Origin: Bacteroidota bacterium
Lineage (GTDB): Bacteria > Bacteroidota > Bacteroidia > J057 > JAJTIE01
Direction of reading: 5' to 3'
Assembly (NCBI GenBank): GCA_019638695.1
Contig: JAHBTG010000013.1
Span: forward strand, 1-52,436
DNA: 52,436 bases
Shown here: positions 3,102 through 10,211 of the stretch, one piece after another
How the letters are laid out: each line of letters begins with the position of its first letter
Position numbering within the stretch: position 1 is the first letter of the stretch
The notes under the pieces: generated by a model
The model's database searches: none
Told to the model about the DNA's origin: nothing
The model's input: the letters and a program-made list of their open reading frames with translations, nothing else
Position numbers and translations under genes: made by a program

Positions 3102-3824
3102 TTAGAAGAGCCAGCCCACACCCACTACCAGGTTGAAGCCGTTATGATGCAGGAGGCGCTTGCCTGCCCAGCGGGCTATCTGGGTGTCGCCGGAGCGGTT
3201 GGTAGCCAAGTAACCCATGCGGAACAATACCCCCGTTTGCACCCCTATGTCCAGCAGCCAGCGAGGCGCTATGGCCAGTTGATTGCCTACCTGCAGGTTG
3301 ACGGCCAGCGCATGCAGTTCTCCGAAACGGTAACCCCCCAGGGCTTCGCTGGTTCGCTGGCTGCTATGTTTGCCTTCATAGATATAAGCATAGTGCCGGT
3401 TGACATCTACAGCTCCGTAGAGGCCGAGCGGCGCCAGGCTGCCCGCCGGGCGCGGCCAGAAGACCTTGGCACGCAATCCCCAGTACAGGCTGCTGATGCG
3501 CAGGAAGTCGCCATCCGCCAGTCCTCTTTCTTCCAGCGTCACACCCGTTGGGTGGGTCGTCACCTCCAGCGGCAGGGCTGTGGCCATGCCGCCCACTTGT
3601 GCCCCTACCGCCAGCCAGGGACGCAGCACGTACTCTGCACCCAGCTGGTTGCGCAGGTTCCAGCGCCCTAATGGGAGGGGCTGATGCCGCACCGAGGGAA
3701 AGAGATACCCGTTCCACTGAAGATAGGCGCGGCGGCCTTGCCAGCCGGCTGTCTGCGCCTGCAGCCAGTGGGGGACAGACAGCAGTCCTATGAGGATAAT
3801 AAAGAGGAATGTGCGCAGGCTCAT
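3102..3824 (-). CDS. Small outer-membrane beta-barrel-like protein, translationally coupled to the M48-like gene
   Basis: The product is 240 residues. It starts with a classic signal peptide (MSLRTFLFIILIGLLSVPHWLQAQ) and continues with alternating hydrophobic/polar stretches (for example WNLRNQLGAEYVLRPWLAVG and LDIGVQTGVLFRMGY), ending in an aromatic residue (GVGWLF), as expected for an outer-membrane beta barrel. The start at 3824 is decided by an ATGA overlap with the stop of the upstream gene (ATG 3824-3822, TGA 3823-3821). Longer starts in the same frame would lose the signal peptide. The tight coupling suggests that it acts together with the upstream M48-like membrane protein, perhaps at the envelope. 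No family name could be assigned. Confidence 0.7.
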   Translation of the reverse strand: MSLRTFLFIILIGLLSVPHWLQAQTAGWQGRRAYLQWNGYLFPSVRHQPLPLGRWNLRNQLGAEYVLRPWLAVGAQVGGMATALPLEVTTHPTGVTLEERGLADGDFLRISSLYWGLRAKVFWPRPAGSLAPLGLYGAVDVNRHYAYIYEGKHSSQRTSEALGGYRFGELHALAVNLQVGNQLAIAPRWLLDIGVQTGVLFRMGYLATNRSGDTQIARWAGKRLLHHNGFNLVVGVGWLF

Positions 3825-6007
3825 GGTTGCGGAACGGCTATATGGCTGCATTGGAGCAACGCCTGGTGGATATGGGCATGCCAGAGATCCTGCCGCCAAT
3901 GATCTGCCCGGATGCTTGCGCTATAGGTAAAAGCCGGCTGTCCGGTGCGCAGGTAATATACCCGCAGGTTCACGGTCTGCTGGGGGGCAGGGGTAGCCGC
4001 ATAATACAGCCCTGCAGGCAGCAGCGGGGTGACCACAGCACTGGCGGCCAATACCCAGGGCCAGTGCTCCCGGTGCTGGCGGGAAGTATATACCTGGCAA
4101 GTGGCCCCAAATTGCCCGCCTGACGGGGCATATTCCGGGCAAAGGCTCAGGCAGCCCGGCGGCGCCTTGCTGCGTTCATAGAGCCACAGATGCAGTTGCT
4201 GCAGGTTATGGTAATCGGCCAGGCTGTCGCGCTCCAGGAATGCACCGTCCAGCAAATGCGCCTGCAGCCCCAGGCTGTCCAGCTGCCTGGCCATATATTG
4301 GTTCAGCACAAACTGTGTTTTCAAAGAGGTTTCCATCTGCAGTTTGTCCGTCTTGCGCATATCGGCCAGCAGGTAATCCCCTTTGGCAAAGAGGATATCC
4401 TGTAGCAGGATATGGCCGGGTGGGACAGGAGGCTTTTTGAGCCCCGTAGCGATAAGCATTTTGCTGAGCTGCGATACTTTGAGGCTATCAGCAGGATCCT
4501 GCTCAAAAAGAGTATACAGCAAGGGGTTCCCGGCATAGTCCTTCAGTGCGTCCAGGCACAAAGGGGTGCGCACCGGTTTGTGAGAGGCGTCTGTACCAAA
4601 GTCTGCCGCATCTTCTCCGCTGGCCAGGGCTGTGCGCAGCCATTGAGGTTCCCATTGCCATCTTTGCCGCAGATCCTGCGCCAGGTCCTGGGCCAGGCAC
4701 AATACCAGCGTATCGGAGGGATACCGCTGGAGGTGGCGCAGGCATACATGGAGCGTGATACAATGGAGTTCCAGGGGCGGTATTTCCCGGAAGAGGTGCA
4801 TTAATTGCGTCACCTGGCCACTGTGCAAGGCAGGATCCGGCTGCTTGCCGGCAGAAGTGGAATCTGCTGTGGCTTTGGCGGCACCGTAGAGTGCGCGCAG
4901 CTGCACCTGTTCCAGGAAAGGATTGGCAAAATCTTCCAGCTCCAGGATATAAGCCTGGTAGAAGGCACGTGCATACCGGTGGGTAGCCAGCAGCAGCAGG
5001 CATTGTTCATACCGTGCAAGCTTCACGGCATAGGCAAATGCCTCCGGGGGTAGGAGGTAAGCGGCTCCGCCTCGTTTCCACTGGGTGAGCGCCTGTTCCA
5101 TAGCGCTGACCCGTACCTTGGGCTGGGCAAACCGTGCAATATGTCCGTCGGATTGCGCATCGGGCTGCTGGTCATGTACCACCAGCGGCAGGTATTCCTG
5201 CGGTATACGCAGGTATTCGCTTTCCAGGAATACGGTGGAGAAAAAGATATCTTCTGCATGCCCATACAGGCTGCCCAGCACCTGCAATGCCGGCAACGCT
5301 TCTGCCGCAGCATAGCCGGCCCGCACATAAGTCCCCAGGCAGGCAGTATCAGCATATATCTGGTCAGCAGCACCATACAGGCGGCGCCCCAGCAGCCGGT
5401 CTTCCAGGTCCGGCTGTTCCAGGCCCTGCAGCGTTTGGGAGACACTCAGAAACACGTCTTGCCCGGATATCCGGTGCTGGTGAATATAATGTACCACCAG
5501 GCGGGACAATGCCCAGGCCAGCTGGGCCTCATTCTGGCAACGGGCGATGAGCCCGGTGGTGATAAAGGCCATGCCGTTCTCCGTTACAAACGCATTGATG
5601 GCCGGGCTCTTTACCACATAGAAACGCAGTTCCCGCATCAGCGTCGGATTGCGGTGGATGAGGGTATAGGCTACCTGGTTCACATAGCGGCTCAGGGTAT
5701 CGTTGAAAAGCACCCTGCCTTCTGAGAACATGTCATAGATGGCAAATTGCACATGCTTGAGGTAATTGATCTTCTCCTCGCGGTAGAGTGCAAATTCTTC
5801 CCGGAAGCCAAAGGTCCCCGCCTGGTTGGGATTGAGGTGCAATACACTGAGCAGGTCAGGGGGCAATGCGCCTTCGCTCAGCAAGGGGGTATAATGCCTG
5901 AAGTCGGTTTGTGCTGCCGTTTGCCCGGGAAGACCCGGGAGAAGCCACAAGGACCATAGCAGAAAACGGCACAGGGTTTGGCGCACAGCAGACGGATTTT
6001 GCCCCAC
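3821..6007 (-). CDS. M48-family metalloprotease homologue with lost zinc ligands (pseudoprotease)
   Basis: This 728-residue protein starts with a signal sequence (residues about 12-33, ending AAQT) and then shows the M48 peptidase fold. VKSPAINAFVTENGMAFITTGLI (about 132-154) corresponds to the conserved N-A-F-x-x-x-x-G-x-x-x-x-x-x-G-L segment of M48 enzymes. The helix that should carry HExxH reads R169-L-V-V-H173, so the first His and the catalytic Glu are gone and only the second His remains. The later E-x-x-x-D ligand motif reads Q216-I-Y-A-D220, so the third ligand is also lost. A single membrane helix lies near residues 651-670. From established M48 chemistry this protein should not be a zinc protease; a scaffold or binding role is inferred. 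Translation starts at a GTG at 6007. It is followed by the coupled beta-barrel gene and is driven by the box at 6036-6043. Confidence 0.7.
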   Translation of the reverse strand: MGQNPSAVRQTLCRFLLWSLWLLPGLPGQTAAQTDFRHYTPLLSEGALPPDLLSVLHLNPNQAGTFGFREEFALYREEKINYLKHVQFAIYDMFSEGRVLFNDTLSRYVNQVAYTLIHRNPTLMRELRFYVVKSPAINAFVTENGMAFITTGLIARCQNEAQLAWALSRLVVHYIHQHRISGQDVFLSVSQTLQGLEQPDLEDRLLGRRLYGAADQIYADTACLGTYVRAGYAAAEALPALQVLGSLYGHAEDIFFSTVFLESEYLRIPQEYLPLVVHDQQPDAQSDGHIARFAQPKVRVSAMEQALTQWKRGGAAYLLPPEAFAYAVKLARYEQCLLLLATHRYARAFYQAYILELEDFANPFLEQVQLRALYGAAKATADSTSAGKQPDPALHSGQVTQLMHLFREIPPLELHCITLHVCLRHLQRYPSDTLVLCLAQDLAQDLRQRWQWEPQWLRTALASGEDAADFGTDASHKPVRTPLCLDALKDYAGNPLLYTLFEQDPADSLKVSQLSKMLIATGLKKPPVPPGHILLQDILFAKGDYLLADMRKTDKLQMETSLKTQFVLNQYMARQLDSLGLQAHLLDGAFLERDSLADYHNLQQLHLWLYERSKAPPGCLSLCPEYAPSGGQFGATCQVYTSRQHREHWPWVLAASAVVTPLLPAGLYYAATPAPQQTVNLRVYYLRTGQPAFTYSASIRADHWRQDLWHAHIHQALLQCSHIAVPQP

Positions 6008-6035
6008 CTTTGCCAGAGAGAACAGGGGCTTCCCA

Positions 6036-6043
6036 CAAAGTTA
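6036..6043 (-). promoter_or_regulatory. -7 box of the leftward promoter of the M48-like gene
   Basis: On the minus strand this reads TAACTTTG, an exact TAnnTTTG box, 29 bases before the GTG at 6007. No clear -33 TTG is seen. It lies only 16 bases from the rightward box at 6060-6067, so two RNA polymerases could not easily use both promoters at once. Confidence 0.5.
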
Positions 6044-6059
6044 GCCAAAACCTATTTGC

Positions 6060-6067
6060 TAGATTTG
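6060..6067 (+). promoter_or_regulatory. -7 box of the rightward lipoprotein promoter
   Basis: TAGATTTG is an exact TAnnTTTG box. It ends seven bases before the first base of the GTG start at 6074, so the transcript should begin within about 0-3 bases of the start codon. This supports the GTG at 6074 over the ATG at 5978. Confidence 0.5.
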
Positions 6068-6073
6068 CCATAC

Positions 6074-7711
6074 GTGAAACTCATATACATTTTTTTGCTT
6101 GCCTGCCTGGGCGGTTGTGCGGCTATCAAGGCCCCGGAAGGCGGGCCGCGTGATAATACCGGGCCGTTGCTCCTGCGGGTGACCCCGGCTCACCTGAGCA
6201 CGCAAACGCGGCAGCCGCATGTGGTTTTCCGCTTTAATGAATACCTGGACCGCAACAGCGTGCAGTCTGCAGTCTTTATCTCCCCCATTCCGGCGGTGCC
6301 GCCCCGCATCTGGGCCAAGAACCGGCAGCTCCATGTCCAGTTCATGGCCCCGGTGCCGGATAGCACCACCTGTGTCATTAGCGTGGGTACAGGGTTAAGA
6401 GATTTTAACGAAAAAAATCCTATCGAAGAAGGCTTCAGTTATGCCTTTAGCAGCGGCAGCCATATAGATACCGGTATGGTGCGCGGGCACCTGGTCAGCG
6501 CGTTTACCGGTAAGCCGGTGAGCCGCATGCGCGCCCTGTTGTTCCCGGAAGACAGCGTACAAGGGGGGTATTTTGGGCGTATGCCGCTCTATGCGGCAGA
6601 TGCGGATTCCGGTGGTCACTTCACGTTAGCTTATTTACGCCCCGGCCGTTACCGTTTGCTGGCGGTGGGCGACAAGGATAACAGCTACAGCTGGAATCAG
6701 CCCACAGAAACCATAGGCGCCCGGCAGGATAACGACCTGCTCATAGATGCCCGGAATACCGGCTGGGAGGCAGATCTGATCACCTGGGTGCCGGATGACC
6801 AGCCTCCGCGCTTGCTGGCCGCGCTCCCTCTCCATAAATATGCACTTACCCTGCGGTTCAGCGAACCCCTGGCACAAGCCCCCGTCGTCTTGATAGGCAC
6901 GGATACCCTGCCGGCCCAGTGGGCTCCGGAGGGTAAGGCAGAACTCGTGCGGCTAAACTTGCCCCATGCGCTGGATACAACTGCGTTGCCCCTGCAGTTG
7001 CGTGCAGTCACAGACACTGCCGGCAACCGTATGGATACGCTGGCGGTGTTGCAACCGGAACCCTGGGCGCCCAATCCCCGCTTGCGCCAGCCTGCGCCCA
7101 TTATCTCTTATATACCGCCTGTTACAGCGTTCCGGCCACTGGGGCTGGTCTTTCTGTGCCGGGATGCCCTGGCATCTGCGCAGGACACTGCGGATGCCAT
7201 AGCCGTTACAACCCTGGAGGATAACCCCGTTCCGTTCCGGTACCAGAAACTGGGCAGTCATAGTTTTGCCGTGGAGCTTCGTTACCCCTATAGCGATAGC
7301 ATACGTATCACTCTCAAACCGGGGCTCCGGCTGGCCTTTGACCGCCAGCTGGATACCACGCTGGTATTTACCTGTTTGCCTGAGAACCCCGACCGTTACG
7401 GCAGTTTTCAGATGGAGTTGGTGGCTCGCCGGGCGCCCCTGATCCTGGAGCTGCTGGACAGCCGGCAACAAGTGGTGCGCCGGGAGCGCGTAACCCAGGC
7501 AGGTGTCCATCCCTTTGGGTGGACGTGGCTGCGCCCCGGAGACTACAGCCTGCGGGTGATTTCCGATGAAGACCATAGCGGCGCCTGGACCCCCGGCCGC
7601 CTCATTCCCTGGCGGCGGCCGGAGCCGGTAGTCTATTATCCGGATCGTATTTCCTTGCGTGCCAGCTGGGAAATGGAGGGCTTGCGCATTGAATATCCCC
7701 CACATCGGTAA
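6074..7711 (+). CDS. Lipoprotein with N-terminal SbsA/Big_5-type Ig-like domain
   Basis: The product is 545 residues, starting at GTG 6074: VKLIYIFLLACLGGC is a short SpII signal with lipobox LGGC (Cys15), so the mature protein is a lipoprotein. The next part (CAAIKAPEGGPRD, then VTPAHLSTQTRQPHVVFRFNEYL, ISPIPAVPPR, TTCVISVGTGLRDFNEKNP, YAFSSGSHIDTGMVRG) is the pattern of the Bacteroidota Ig-like (Big_5/SbsA) lipoprotein family, in which the domain binds or presents at the cell surface or periplasm. The rest (about 150-545) is beta-rich with repeated Ig-like or carboxypeptidase-regulatory-like strands. An ATG start at 5978 would bury the lipobox behind 32 residues and overlap the opposite gene, so it is rejected. 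It is probably first in a co-directional run with the next three genes. Confidence 0.75.
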   Translation: MKLIYIFLLACLGGCAAIKAPEGGPRDNTGPLLLRVTPAHLSTQTRQPHVVFRFNEYLDRNSVQSAVFISPIPAVPPRIWAKNRQLHVQFMAPVPDSTTCVISVGTGLRDFNEKNPIEEGFSYAFSSGSHIDTGMVRGHLVSAFTGKPVSRMRALLFPEDSVQGGYFGRMPLYAADADSGGHFTLAYLRPGRYRLLAVGDKDNSYSWNQPTETIGARQDNDLLIDARNTGWEADLITWVPDDQPPRLLAALPLHKYALTLRFSEPLAQAPVVLIGTDTLPAQWAPEGKAELVRLNLPHALDTTALPLQLRAVTDTAGNRMDTLAVLQPEPWAPNPRLRQPAPIISYIPPVTAFRPLGLVFLCRDALASAQDTADAIAVTTLEDNPVPFRYQKLGSHSFAVELRYPYSDSIRITLKPGLRLAFDRQLDTTLVFTCLPENPDRYGSFQMELVARRAPLILELLDSRQQVVRRERVTQAGVHPFGWTWLRPGDYSLRVISDEDHSGAWTPGRLIPWRRPEPVVYYPDRISLRASWEMEGLRIEYPPHR

Positions 7712-7747
7712 GATTTTGCTAACTTACCCCCATTGTTTCATGCTGGT

Positions 7748-8845
7748 ATGAAAAAAAGACTACTGAGCGCCTGTGTGGGCCTCTTGCTCCTGATGCCTGC
7801 AGGTTGCGGTGTATTCAAAGACCCCGAACTGCCCACCTGGAACCTGGATCTGTATGGCCCGCTTTCCTTGGTGGAAGTTGAGCTGTCGGATCTCTTCAGC
7901 GGGCAGGTCTTTACTTATGGAACCGGGTTCAAGGTGAGCGATTTCAGCCTGCCCTTCCCGCTCAATTTCCCTATCCCCGGCATATCGGGTTATGATGTGC
8001 CGGAGATCGATACGGTCATCTCCCGGGACTTTAAGTCGCTGATACTGGGATCTGCTTACCTGGGAGTGAGCATTGAGAACAACTGGCCTATCAATATCCA
8101 GGCCGGTACTGTCATTAGCATTAGCAATGAAGAAGATGAACTGCTGGTAGCCTTTACGTTGGAGCAGAACATTGCGCCTAACGGGGGTACTTACCAGCGG
8201 GAGGTGTATGTTGAGAATGTCCGTTATACGGCCCGCCTCAAGTTCCAGATCACCAACCTGGGTACGGATGGCTCCGGCGGGCAGGTGGTGGACTTCGGGG
8301 ACAAGGAGCTCCGTTTCCTGTTCAGTCCCCGTGAGATGGACATTGTGGAGATGACCATTACAGACAACCGTGAGATCCCTTATGAGGAGTCTGATGATTT
8401 CAGTATTACCAGTGACCGGGTGAAAGCCCTGGGCGTGCTGGGTAAGTTCTATACCATCTTTTCCAATCCTCATCCTTTCTCCTTCTCCAACCAGAGCTAC
8501 CTGCTGGCTACGGACAGCACAGTGCTGGACTCGCTCTTTGAAGGTACACAGCTCATTATGGGAACAGAGGGTTTGCAGGCGTCCGGCGCCTGCCCCAATC
8601 TGCAGGGCACGGTGCAGGTGCCGCCGGATGATGCTATCCTCCAAAGACCTGTCATTAACCGGGATACGATTAATCTCACACAGACCCGCCTGGAAAATAT
8701 CAATGCGGCCAAGATCGTCAAAATACGCGGCTATATCTGCCTGCCTCCCAACCCGGATAACAGCGGGGTCTGGACGATGCGTAAGGAAGACGTGATTTTC
8801 CTCAAGATCATTGGCGACATTAATCTAAAAATGGACCTGAAGTAG
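7748..8845 (+). CDS. Uncharacterised lipoprotein
   Basis: This 365-residue protein starts at ATG 7748 with MKKRLLSACVGLLLLMPAGC. The Cys at residue 20 is in a slightly non-canonical lipobox (PAGC), so it is probably a lipoprotein. The mature chain is mostly beta-predicted and contains FPIPGISGYDVPEIDT and repeated short strands. No catalytic motif was seen, and no family could be named with confidence. It lies 36 bases after the Ig-like lipoprotein and one base before the DUF5723-type outer-membrane gene, so the three are most likely co-transcribed and may form one envelope assembly. An in-frame ATG at 7733 is less likely because it puts five extra residues before the lysine-rich signal start. 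Confidence 0.6.
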   Translation: MKKRLLSACVGLLLLMPAGCGVFKDPELPTWNLDLYGPLSLVEVELSDLFSGQVFTYGTGFKVSDFSLPFPLNFPIPGISGYDVPEIDTVISRDFKSLILGSAYLGVSIENNWPINIQAGTVISISNEEDELLVAFTLEQNIAPNGGTYQREVYVENVRYTARLKFQITNLGTDGSGGQVVDFGDKELRFLFSPREMDIVEMTITDNREIPYEESDDFSITSDRVKALGVLGKFYTIFSNPHPFSFSNQSYLLATDSTVLDSLFEGTQLIMGTEGLQASGACPNLQGTVQVPPDDAILQRPVINRDTINLTQTRLENINAAKIVKIRGYICLPPNPDNSGVWTMRKEDVIFLKIIGDINLKMDLK

Positions 8846-8846
8846 C

Positions 8847-10211
8847 ATGAAACGGTTCCTCTCTTTCTGGCTTTTCACGTGTGTGGGGAGCAGCCTTTTG
8901 CCGGTATATGCCCAGGATGCCTATAGCCTGCTGTATAGCCAGCCAGGCAGTTTGCGGGCCAGTACGCTGGCGCCAGCCAGCCTGAAGTTTGCCGGCGACC
9001 GCCAATGGCAGCTTGGTACCCTGAGCCTGAACGGCTGGCTGGCCAATAACGGAGCCCACGCACCCCTGGCTGCCCGTTTCTTTTCCGGGCAGCATATCAC
9101 AGAACAGCAAAAGGATGAATTGCTGGCAGATCTGCCCACGGTCATTCGCCTGGGTGCCGGTGCCAATGTCATGAGCCTGGGTGCTGGCTTTCAGTTGCAG
9201 AACCCCGCGCACCTGGCTTTCAGCTTCATGGCTACGGACCGGGTGCTGGCCACGGCCCAGTTTCATAAGAACTTCCTGGACTTCATGCTGCGCGGCAACC
9301 GCCATCTTGCCGGGCAACGTGTGGACCTGGCGCAAGATATGCGCATGGGCGGCATATGGATGCGGGAATATGCACTGGGGGCAGCCACAGACCTGTTTGG
9401 AGACTCCGAACATTTTCGCCTGCGCCTGGGTGTGCGGGCCAAGCTGCTGGCCGGTTATTTTGCCGTGCAGGTAGAAGATCCCCGCCTGGAAATTTACACG
9501 CACCCGGACGGAGAGTATATCGATGCCAATTATGATTATTCCCTCTATAAAACCCGGGGCGAAGGCATGGGGCCCTTTAAGCCGAGGGGCACAGGCTTTG
9601 GCATGGACATCGGCTTGCAGGCGGATATCCATCAGAGGCTGCAAGTGGGCCTTTCGCTGGTAGATATAGGTAAGGTGAATATTAACAAGGAAGTAGATCT
9701 GTACCGGGGCAAAGGCAATGAACGCTATGAGCAGCTCATTGTGGGCGCCCTCTTCTGGGACGACCGCTTTGCAGGTTCCAGTGAGGAAGAACAGCGTTCC
9801 TATCCGCTGGCGCCGGATACCCTGCTGCTGCAATCTTTTCAGATGGCGTTGCCTACCCGCCTGGTACTGAATACCCAGCTGGGGCTGGGAGAAGCGCAGG
9901 AGAATGCTTTTGGTGCCGCCTATCACCCGCACATGCTCTTTCTGTCCGGCACCTTACTGCTGGTGGATGCTCCCGGCTATCATCGTGCTCCGGCACTTTC
10001 TGCCGCCTATGCCTACCATCTCAAAGGCATTCTGCGCATAGGCGCCAGCCTTTCGCACAGCGGTTATTCGCCCATAGGTGCGGGCGCCTTTGCCGGGCTG
10101 GATACCGGTTTCTTTCAGCTGGGCCTGGCTTCGGAAAATATTATCCCACTGCTGCGTAAGGACGAACTGGCCGGGGGAGATTTCATGCTCAACCTCTCCT
10201 TTTCCTTTTAG
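8847..10211 (+). CDS. DUF5723-like outer-membrane protein
   Basis: The product has 454 residues and an SpI signal peptide (MKRFLSFWLFTCVGSSLLPVYAQ). The body has repeated amphipathic strands with aromatic girdles (FRLRLGVRAKLLAGY, LQVGLSLVDIGKVNINKE, ILRIGASLSHSGY) and ends in the aromatic pattern LNLSFSF, typical of a beta barrel. The overall layout, including the KVNINKE segment near the middle, resembles the Bacteroidota-specific DUF5723 family of outer-membrane proteins, whose function is unknown. The ATG follows the stop of the preceding lipoprotein gene by one base. A role as the barrel partner of the two upstream lipoproteins is inferred from position only. Confidence 0.7.
   Translation: MKRFLSFWLFTCVGSSLLPVYAQDAYSLLYSQPGSLRASTLAPASLKFAGDRQWQLGTLSLNGWLANNGAHAPLAARFFSGQHITEQQKDELLADLPTVIRLGAGANVMSLGAGFQLQNPAHLAFSFMATDRVLATAQFHKNFLDFMLRGNRHLAGQRVDLAQDMRMGGIWMREYALGAATDLFGDSEHFRLRLGVRAKLLAGYFAVQVEDPRLEIYTHPDGEYIDANYDYSLYKTRGEGMGPFKPRGTGFGMDIGLQADIHQRLQVGLSLVDIGKVNINKEVDLYRGKGNERYEQLIVGALFWDDRFAGSSEEEQRSYPLAPDTLLLQSFQMALPTRLVLNTQLGLGEAQENAFGAAYHPHMLFLSGTLLLVDAPGYHRAPALSAAYAYHLKGILRIGASLSHSGYSPIGAGAFAGLDTGFFQLGLASENIIPLLRKDELAGGDFMLNLSFSF

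What the first reader, a model, noticed from the sequence alone, without database searches (positions are those of the whole stretch)
3821..6007. M48-like membrane protein with all but one zinc ligand lost, coupled to a beta barrel
The helix with HExxH reads RLVVH and the third ligand motif reads QIYAD, while the surrounding M48 sequence is well kept. This looks like a conserved pseudoprotease anchored by a C-terminal helix (about 651-670). The downstream outer-membrane-like gene starts inside its stop codon, which suggests that they work as a pair, for example as a stress or assembly sensor.
Basis: partly seen in the sequence, partly recalled or inferred. Interest (0 to 1): 0.6.

Follow-up and report, generated by a model that had tools for sequence, protein, structure and literature searches.

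The report
Dead M48 protease paired with barrel
A bacterial cell-envelope protein built like a protein-cutting enzyme has lost its metal-binding cutting site but is kept by evolution next to an outer-membrane barrel protein, which suggests it now works by holding or guiding proteins rather than cutting them.

Summary
Window 3821-6007(-) encodes a 728-aa secreted M48-fold protein (Pfam 24.9 bits; BepA fold Z 14.0) in which HExxH reads RLVVH, the third-ligand Glu is Gln, and the plug His of HPx4R is Phe. It belongs to an apparently undescribed Bacteroidia family (103 of 395 class genomes): BepA-like M48, TPR-like helices, CsgG/PelC/TolB-N-like C-terminal domain. Of 130 sampled members with the motif covered, 123 are intact and 7 degenerate. 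The loss is not local: the orthologue in another genus (38% identity) has lost all ligands. At least three losses are independent; in all 7 the first His became Arg. One such lineage shows dN/dS of about 0.03-0.05. An OmpA-like barrel gene is adjacent in 59 of 84 intact and 5 of 7 degenerate members; window and orthologue share the same ATGA overlap. The 'C-terminal anchor' is a hydrophobic insertion inside the C-terminal domain, absent from some relatives. Most likely a pseudoprotease acting as a chaperone-like or regulatory partner at the outer membrane; that function is inferred, not shown.

The parts
3821..6007 (-). Pseudoprotease gene, 728 aa, M48/BepA-like + TPR-like + CsgG/TolB-N-like domain
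5909..6007 (-). Likely Sec signal peptide, residues 1-33 (ends AAQ; no lipobox Cys)
   Evidence: sequence read directly; Q33 93% conserved in intact relatives; cleavage inferred
5078..5719 (-). M48-like domain, about residues 97-310
   Evidence: PF01435 hit 125-183; BepA 6sar Z 14.0, model residues 100-333
5588..5596 (-). Residues N138-A139-F140, aligned with the BepA edge strand N105-A106-F107
   Evidence: alignment; N 99%, A 94% in 115 intact relatives; BepA numbering from PMC8423444
5489..5503 (-). Degenerate HExxH: R169 L V V H173
5348..5362 (-). Degenerate third-ligand motif: Q216 I Y A D220
5111..5131 (-). Remnant of the active-site plug HPx4R: F293 A294 ... R299
   Evidence: H in 116 of 122, R in 122 of 122 full-length members
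4613..5047 (-). TPR-like helical region, about residues 321-465
   Evidence: model helices; TPR-type matches Z about 8-10
3827..4408 (-). C-terminal domain, residues 534-727, CsgG/PelC/HpaA/TolB-N-like fold
   Evidence: Foldseek, VIA-align Z 10.5 CsgG, 10.0 PelC; model confidence there is low
3995..4063 (-). Hydrophobic insertion, residues 649-671, inside the C-terminal domain
3821..3824 (-). ATGA overlap of stop and next start
   Evidence: same in L077
3102..3824 (-). Outer-membrane beta barrel gene, 240 aa, OmpA/OprF-like
   Evidence: OprF Z 15.2
5978..7711 (+). Divergent Big_5 protein, probably a lipoprotein with its true start near 6073 (LACLGGC lipobox)
   Evidence: divergent homologue at the same place in L077, 38% identity; lipobox read from the sequence

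Best explanation
The gene encodes a periplasmic pseudoprotease descended from a Bacteroidia family of BepA-like M48 proteases. SHOWN by sequence: zinc site and plug His gone, fold and family architecture retained, orthologue and gene order kept across two genera, barrel partner kept. INFERRED: it cannot bind catalytic zinc or cut; it still grips client polypeptides through the BepA-type edge strand and TPR-like surface, sits at the periplasmic face of the outer membrane by its CsgG/PelC/TolB-N-like domain (with a hydrophobic insertion dipping into the membrane or onto a partner), and works as a chaperone-like holder or regulator of the co-translated 8-stranded barrel or of proteins that the barrel recruits.
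For: Degenerate site. Orthologue in another genus with the same R and Q; 38% identity over residues 20-727 with no stop. Repeated independent losses with R each time. Purifying selection in a separate degenerate lineage (dN 0.09-0.13 against dS above 2). Edge-strand NAF kept while ligands are lost. Barrel neighbour. Same ATGA overlap in both genera. BepA precedent for non-proteolytic help to a barrel protein and for substrate contact by the edge strand: PMC8423444 passages.
Against: No functional data. The window's own lineage is known from two genomes only. In BepA the protease-dead E137Q gives only weakened LptD maturation (PMC8423444 passages) and is dominant negative (PMC7950410 passages), so a dead M48 is not automatically a good chaperone. 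The edge-strand triplet is HAF in L077 and reads INF in L186. The window protein keeps only 2 of 8 strongly conserved C-terminal-domain columns. The model is weak overall (mean pLDDT 49). No direct evidence of contact with the barrel. The second degenerate lineage (L036, L044) has no barrel neighbour.
Confidence: 0.55

Rival explanations
1. A regulatory decoy: the pseudoprotease binds the intact paralogue (L035, HEIEH) or its substrates and tunes its activity, rather than acting as a chaperone by itself.
For: The own genome keeps one intact family member (L035). In G129 the degenerate copy lies upstream of an intact one on the same contig and strand (122358-124697 and 125832-128150). BepA E137Q is dominant negative over wild type (PMC7950410 passages).
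Against: G001 keeps both degenerate lineages but no intact 700-aa member was found in it; its other M48 hits have frames of 310 and 506 aa. That leaves no obvious same-family client there.
Confidence: 0.2
2. The zinc site was remodelled into a metal-free arginine pocket (R169 plus invariant R299) that binds an anionic ligand such as a C-terminal carboxylate, phosphate or lipid head group, making the protein a receptor.
For: All 7 degenerate members have R at the first His, at least 3 origins; R is kept through synonymous codon changes (CGC/CGG, AGA/CGA); R299 is invariant in 122 of 122. Single-step chance of R in all origins: 0.2-1.2% for four, 0.8-3.7% for three, at transition bias 2-6.
Against: The calculation is post hoc; H to R is one transition away; a purely structural role of R would do as well. 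The first position is R also in the unrelated pseudoprotease FtsHi4 (REAAV; PMC11266112 table), so R may just be a tolerated replacement. No structure of adequate confidence.
Confidence: 0.2
3. A decaying gene: loss of function in progress.
For: Window and L077 have drifted far (38% identity), and L077 has lost even the last ligand.
Against: Open frame over 700 aa in both genera with overlap, barrel and divergent gene kept; a separate degenerate lineage is under strong purifying selection.
Confidence: 0.05

Closest known systems
BepA (YfgC), E. coli M48 beta-barrel assembly-enhancing protease
   Same: Periplasmic M48 fold followed by TPR-like helices; matching edge strand; best structural match (Z 14.0)
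   Different: BepA has intact HExxH, third Glu and plug His; the C-terminal CsgG/TolB-N-like domain matches other proteins, not BepA; NCBIfam BepA score 29.8 against cut-off 570
Putative Zn peptidase 3c37, minimal M48
   Same: M48 fold, best sequence match in PDB
   Different: 253 aa, no added domains; shows an HExxH-type helix in the alignment
CsgG / PelC / HpaA / TolB N-domain / LpoB fold
   Same: C-terminal domain 534-727 matches in fold
   Different: Here fused to a protease fold; about 10% identity; no evidence of ring formation or pore
OmpA/OprF transmembrane domain
   Same: Eight-stranded barrel fold of the partner
   Different: The 240-aa gene is a barrel only, without a further domain; 11-16% identity
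FtsHi pseudoproteases of chloroplasts (M41)
   Same: Metallopeptidase homologues with lost HExxH that are kept; FtsHi4 reads REAAV (PMC11266112, passages)
   Different: Different family (M41), linked to chloroplast protein import

Membership tests
Peptidase family M48 (PF01435), as fold family | Sequence match over curated cut-off | tested here: met
   24.9 bits against 20.3, residues 125-183 only; 5 of 5 members of A2 match
Peptidase family M48 (PF01435), as fold family | M48 fold | tested here: met
   6sar Z 14.0 over 152 residues, 3c37 Z 10.8; model confidence moderate in this part
Active M48 metalloprotease | HExxH | tested here: not met
   RLVVH
Active M48 metalloprotease | Third ligand Glu | tested here: not met
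   Q216
Active M48 metalloprotease | HPx4R active-site plug | tested here: not met
   F293, A294; only R299 kept; motif definition from PMC7950410
Active M48 metalloprotease | Zinc binding and proteolysis in vitro | not testable with these tools
   needs purified protein
BepA equivalog (NF052400) | Score over curated cut-off | tested here: not met
   29.8 against 570 bits
BepA equivalog (NF052400) | TPR domain after the protease domain | tested here: inconclusive
   TPR-type helical matches Z about 8-10 around residues 321-475; repeats often score so
CsgG/PelC/TolB-N-like (anticodon-binding-like) fold | Fold match of the C-terminal domain | tested here: met
   CsgG Z 10.5, HpaA 10.3, PelC 10.0; but local pLDDT only about 31-58 by blocks of ten
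CsgG/PelC/TolB-N-like (anticodon-binding-like) fold | Oligomeric ring or lipoprotein anchor | not testable with these tools
   no lipobox seen in the signal peptide; oligomers not modelled
Small OmpA-type barrel | Signal peptide, 8-stranded barrel fold, aromatic C-terminus | tested here: met
   ends GWLF; OprF Z 15.2, OmpA 13.2; model pLDDT 71.6

The most novel reading that the evidence does not exclude
Bacteroidia carry an undescribed two-gene outer-membrane module (BepA-like M48 protease fused to a CsgG/PelC-like domain, plus a co-translated 8-stranded barrel), and several lineages have separately converted the protease into a metal-free receptor or chaperone by replacing the first zinc His with Arg, which then becomes a conserved functional residue.
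Probability: 0.3. Interest if true: 0.7.

Novelty: new variant of a known kind. Interest (0 to 1): 0.52.

Why it matters
Outer-membrane protein assembly in Bacteroidota has proved very different from that of E. coli (two 2025 BAM structure papers, whose main texts hold no occurrence of M48 or BepA). A widespread protease-barrel pair with repeated, selected loss of catalysis offers a natural separation-of-function series: it shows which parts of a BepA-like protein matter without cutting.

Tried and rejected
Local mutation or assembly error: rejected, since the orthologue in another genus shares R169 and Q216. Misalignment of HExxH: rejected, since the flanking helix aligns without gaps in the rows. 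C-terminal transmembrane anchor: rejected as stated. The 'sensor' reading: left untested. Viral carriers: the scan of viral contigs gave 12 pattern matches and no relative. The genome-contig scan gave 4 relatives, all intact. A phylum-wide sample searched with the profile of the four degenerate proteins of the window's family gave 2 of 395 genomes at E up to 1e-15: the own genome, and one with a short M48-like frame (485 aa). So no further member of those two lineages was found; that search is strict and also missed ordinary family members. Literature: six searches listed no paper on this family; most subscription journals are not in the library.

Limits of counts: family members were collected by similarity to the window protein and are not a random sample; of 138 distinct ORFs, 8 did not cover the motif and were left out of the 130. 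Tallies of barrel neighbours use members with over 900 bases on both sides (91 of 122) or over 600 downstream (105 of 122, of which 70 had it). The barrel profile was grown from the same downstream genes that it counts; as a control, of 125 unique hits among 4103 ORFs in the held loci 107 lie immediately downstream of a family ORF (truncated copies of one gene in overlapping loci may be counted twice). L186 sits on a very long branch and was left out of the careful tree (42 rows of 122), so four origins rest on the quick tree and three on both. The window pair and the L036/L044 pair group with support 70/69 only, so their loss may be one event or two.

Full report
WHAT IS THERE. The reverse-strand frame 3821-6007 starts with GTG and encodes 728 residues. 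Residues 1-33 look like a Sec signal peptide ending AAQ (read from the sequence; Q33 is 93% conserved in intact relatives). Pfam gives only one family, Peptidase_M48, 24.9 bits with cut-off 20.3. PDB sequence search gives 3c37 (E 5.3e-8) and BepA (E 1.3e-3); the family profile A4 (30 rows) gives 3c37 at 7.9e-25 and BepA at 4.7e-19. The AlphaFold2 model from a five-row alignment is weak (mean pLDDT 49.1), with 70-83 in parts of the M48 and helical core. Still, the structure comparison separates two domains: BepA 6sar Z 14.0, rmsd 2.8, 152 residues, model 100-333; and CsgG 4q79 Z 10.5, HpaA Z 10.3, PelC Z 10.0 for model 530-728 (Foldseek). Between them lie helices with TPR-type matches (Z about 8-10, which repeats reach easily).

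THE DEGENERATE SITE. Residues 169-173 are RLVVH and 216-220 QIYAD (coordinates). Among 115 full-length intact relatives the corresponding H, E, H and E are 100% conserved; intact was defined by the first three, so only the fourth is an independent result. BepA's fourth ligand and switch, H246 in the plug motif HPx4R (PMC7950410, passages), is H in 116 of 122 full-length members; the window protein has F, and keeps only the arginine, invariant in 122 of 122. So of three zinc ligands one is left, the general base is Leu, and the plug ligand is gone too. Of 35 other strongly conserved columns in the M48 region the window protein keeps 25.

THE FAMILY. Search of 60 relatives hit 25 genomes at E up to 1e-3; a class-wide draw hit 103 of 395 at E up to 1e-10. 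I fetched stretches for most of these matches and took 138 distinct family ORFs, 122 of them at least 600 aa. In 130 the motif columns are covered: 123 intact, 7 degenerate. The seven are: window (RLVVH, Q); L077 in G001, the only other genome held of the window's family (RLIAQ, Q); L036 in the window's own genome and L044 in G001 (REAAN and REFAN, A); L148 in G031 (REIAH, E kept); L119 in G129 (REIAH, Q); L186 in G227 (REITK, T). All seven have Arg in place of the first His. The own genome also holds one intact family member, L035, HEIEH; G001 holds none of that length that the searches found.

HOW OFTEN AND UNDER WHAT SELECTION. The tree of 122 rows (motif columns left out) needs four changes, at least three forced by strongly supported branches. 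The careful tree of 42 rows, without L186, needs three, all forced, 3-4 in bootstraps; window + L077 is 100/100, and this pair with L036 + L044 is 70/69. Close relatives of L186 exist in two more species of its genus (79 and 84% identity): they keep the Arg, and dN is 0.09-0.13 with dS above 2 (saturated dS, so the ratio of about 0.03-0.05 is rough). L148 and L119 are single-species cases among intact relatives of 42-47% identity. The Arg is kept through synonymous codon change in the L186 trio (AGA, CGA, AGA) and within window/L077 and L036/L044 (CGC, CGG). If the first step is one mutation from CAT or CAC with a transition bias of 2-6, Arg in four of four origins has a chance of 0.2-1.2%, in three of three 0.8-3.7%. 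That is a post hoc calculation and only suggestive.

THE PARTNER. The next gene (3102-3824) is 240 aa with a signal peptide; it matched no Pfam family, and of five barrels tested one had a marginal hit to OMP_b-brl, E 0.02. Its model (pLDDT 71.6) matches 8-stranded barrels: OprF Z 15.2, OmpA 13.2. Its start overlaps the stop of the protease gene as ATGA, and the orthologous pair in L077 has the same ATGA overlap. A profile of this barrel family finds it immediately downstream in 70 of 105 full-length family members with room; counted on either side, next to 59 of 84 intact and 5 of 7 degenerate members. In L148 and several relatives it lies upstream on the other strand instead. L036 and L044 have none. 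So the pair is older than the loss of catalysis. In both genera a Big_5 gene lies divergently upstream (38% identity over 548 aa); among the 152 sources scanned it appears only beside these two.

THE SUPPOSED ANCHOR. The hydrophobic stretch 649-671 is followed by 57 residues that form the last strands and helix of the C-terminal domain in the model. In 17 of 122 members the corresponding segment is under 45 residues and, in the shortest ones listed, little more than a turn between the two strands. A membrane-crossing helix there would place two neighbouring strands on opposite sides, so I read it as a hydrophobic insertion on one side of a membrane, or a partner-binding element. This is inference.

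MECHANISM. BepA both degrades stalled LptD and helps its assembly; its edge strand, with N105, A106, F107, contacts LptD and is needed for both, while E137Q shows only weakened conversion (PMC8423444, passages) and is dominant negative (PMC7950410, passages). The window protein aligns NAF to that strand, and N and A are 99% and 94% conserved in intact relatives. Hence my reading: client binding kept, cutting lost, position at the outer membrane kept with its barrel. Shown: sequence loss, conservation, pairing. Inferred: no zinc, no cutting, chaperone-like or regulatory role, contact with the barrel. Alternatives are a decoy for an intact paralogue and an arginine receptor pocket.

WHAT IS KNOWN. 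Pseudopeptidases are a known kind (review PMC11266112: no occurrence of M48 in its main text; FtsHi4 listed as REAAV; passages). Two 2025 papers on Bacteroidota BAM complexes contain no occurrence of M48, BepA or peptidase in the main text (PMC12611786, PMC12578637; term counts and passages). Six literature searches (listings only, apart from the papers named here) showed nothing on this family. I therefore call it a new variant of a known kind, with an apparently undescribed family behind it.

Noticed in passing
window 5978-7711 (+) and L077 4379-6061 (-): A Big_5 protein, probably a lipoprotein, lies divergently upstream of the pseudoprotease in both genera and beside no other family member in the held loci.
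   Followed up: partly
L119 2516-4855 and the neighbouring member at G129:C11:125832-128150: A degenerate, barrel-paired family member lies directly upstream of an intact one on the same strand.
   Followed up: no
L036 3434-5677 (own genome) and L044 3415-5775: A second degenerate lineage (REAAN/REFAN) keeps the HP of the plug and all 12 strongly conserved columns of the helical region but has no barrel neighbour; in L044 the next gene looks like a metallo-beta-lactamase-fold hydrolase (read by eye).
   Followed up: partly
L091, L082, L168, L184, L185, L181, L187: In these family members the immediate downstream frame is a different one of 525-558 aa instead of the barrel; what it is was not examined.
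   Followed up: no
window 8847-10211 (+): A DUF5723 protein (PF18990, E 1.5e-31) and a preceding uncharacterised lipoprotein-like gene (7733-8845) follow the Big_5 gene in the same direction.
   Followed up: no
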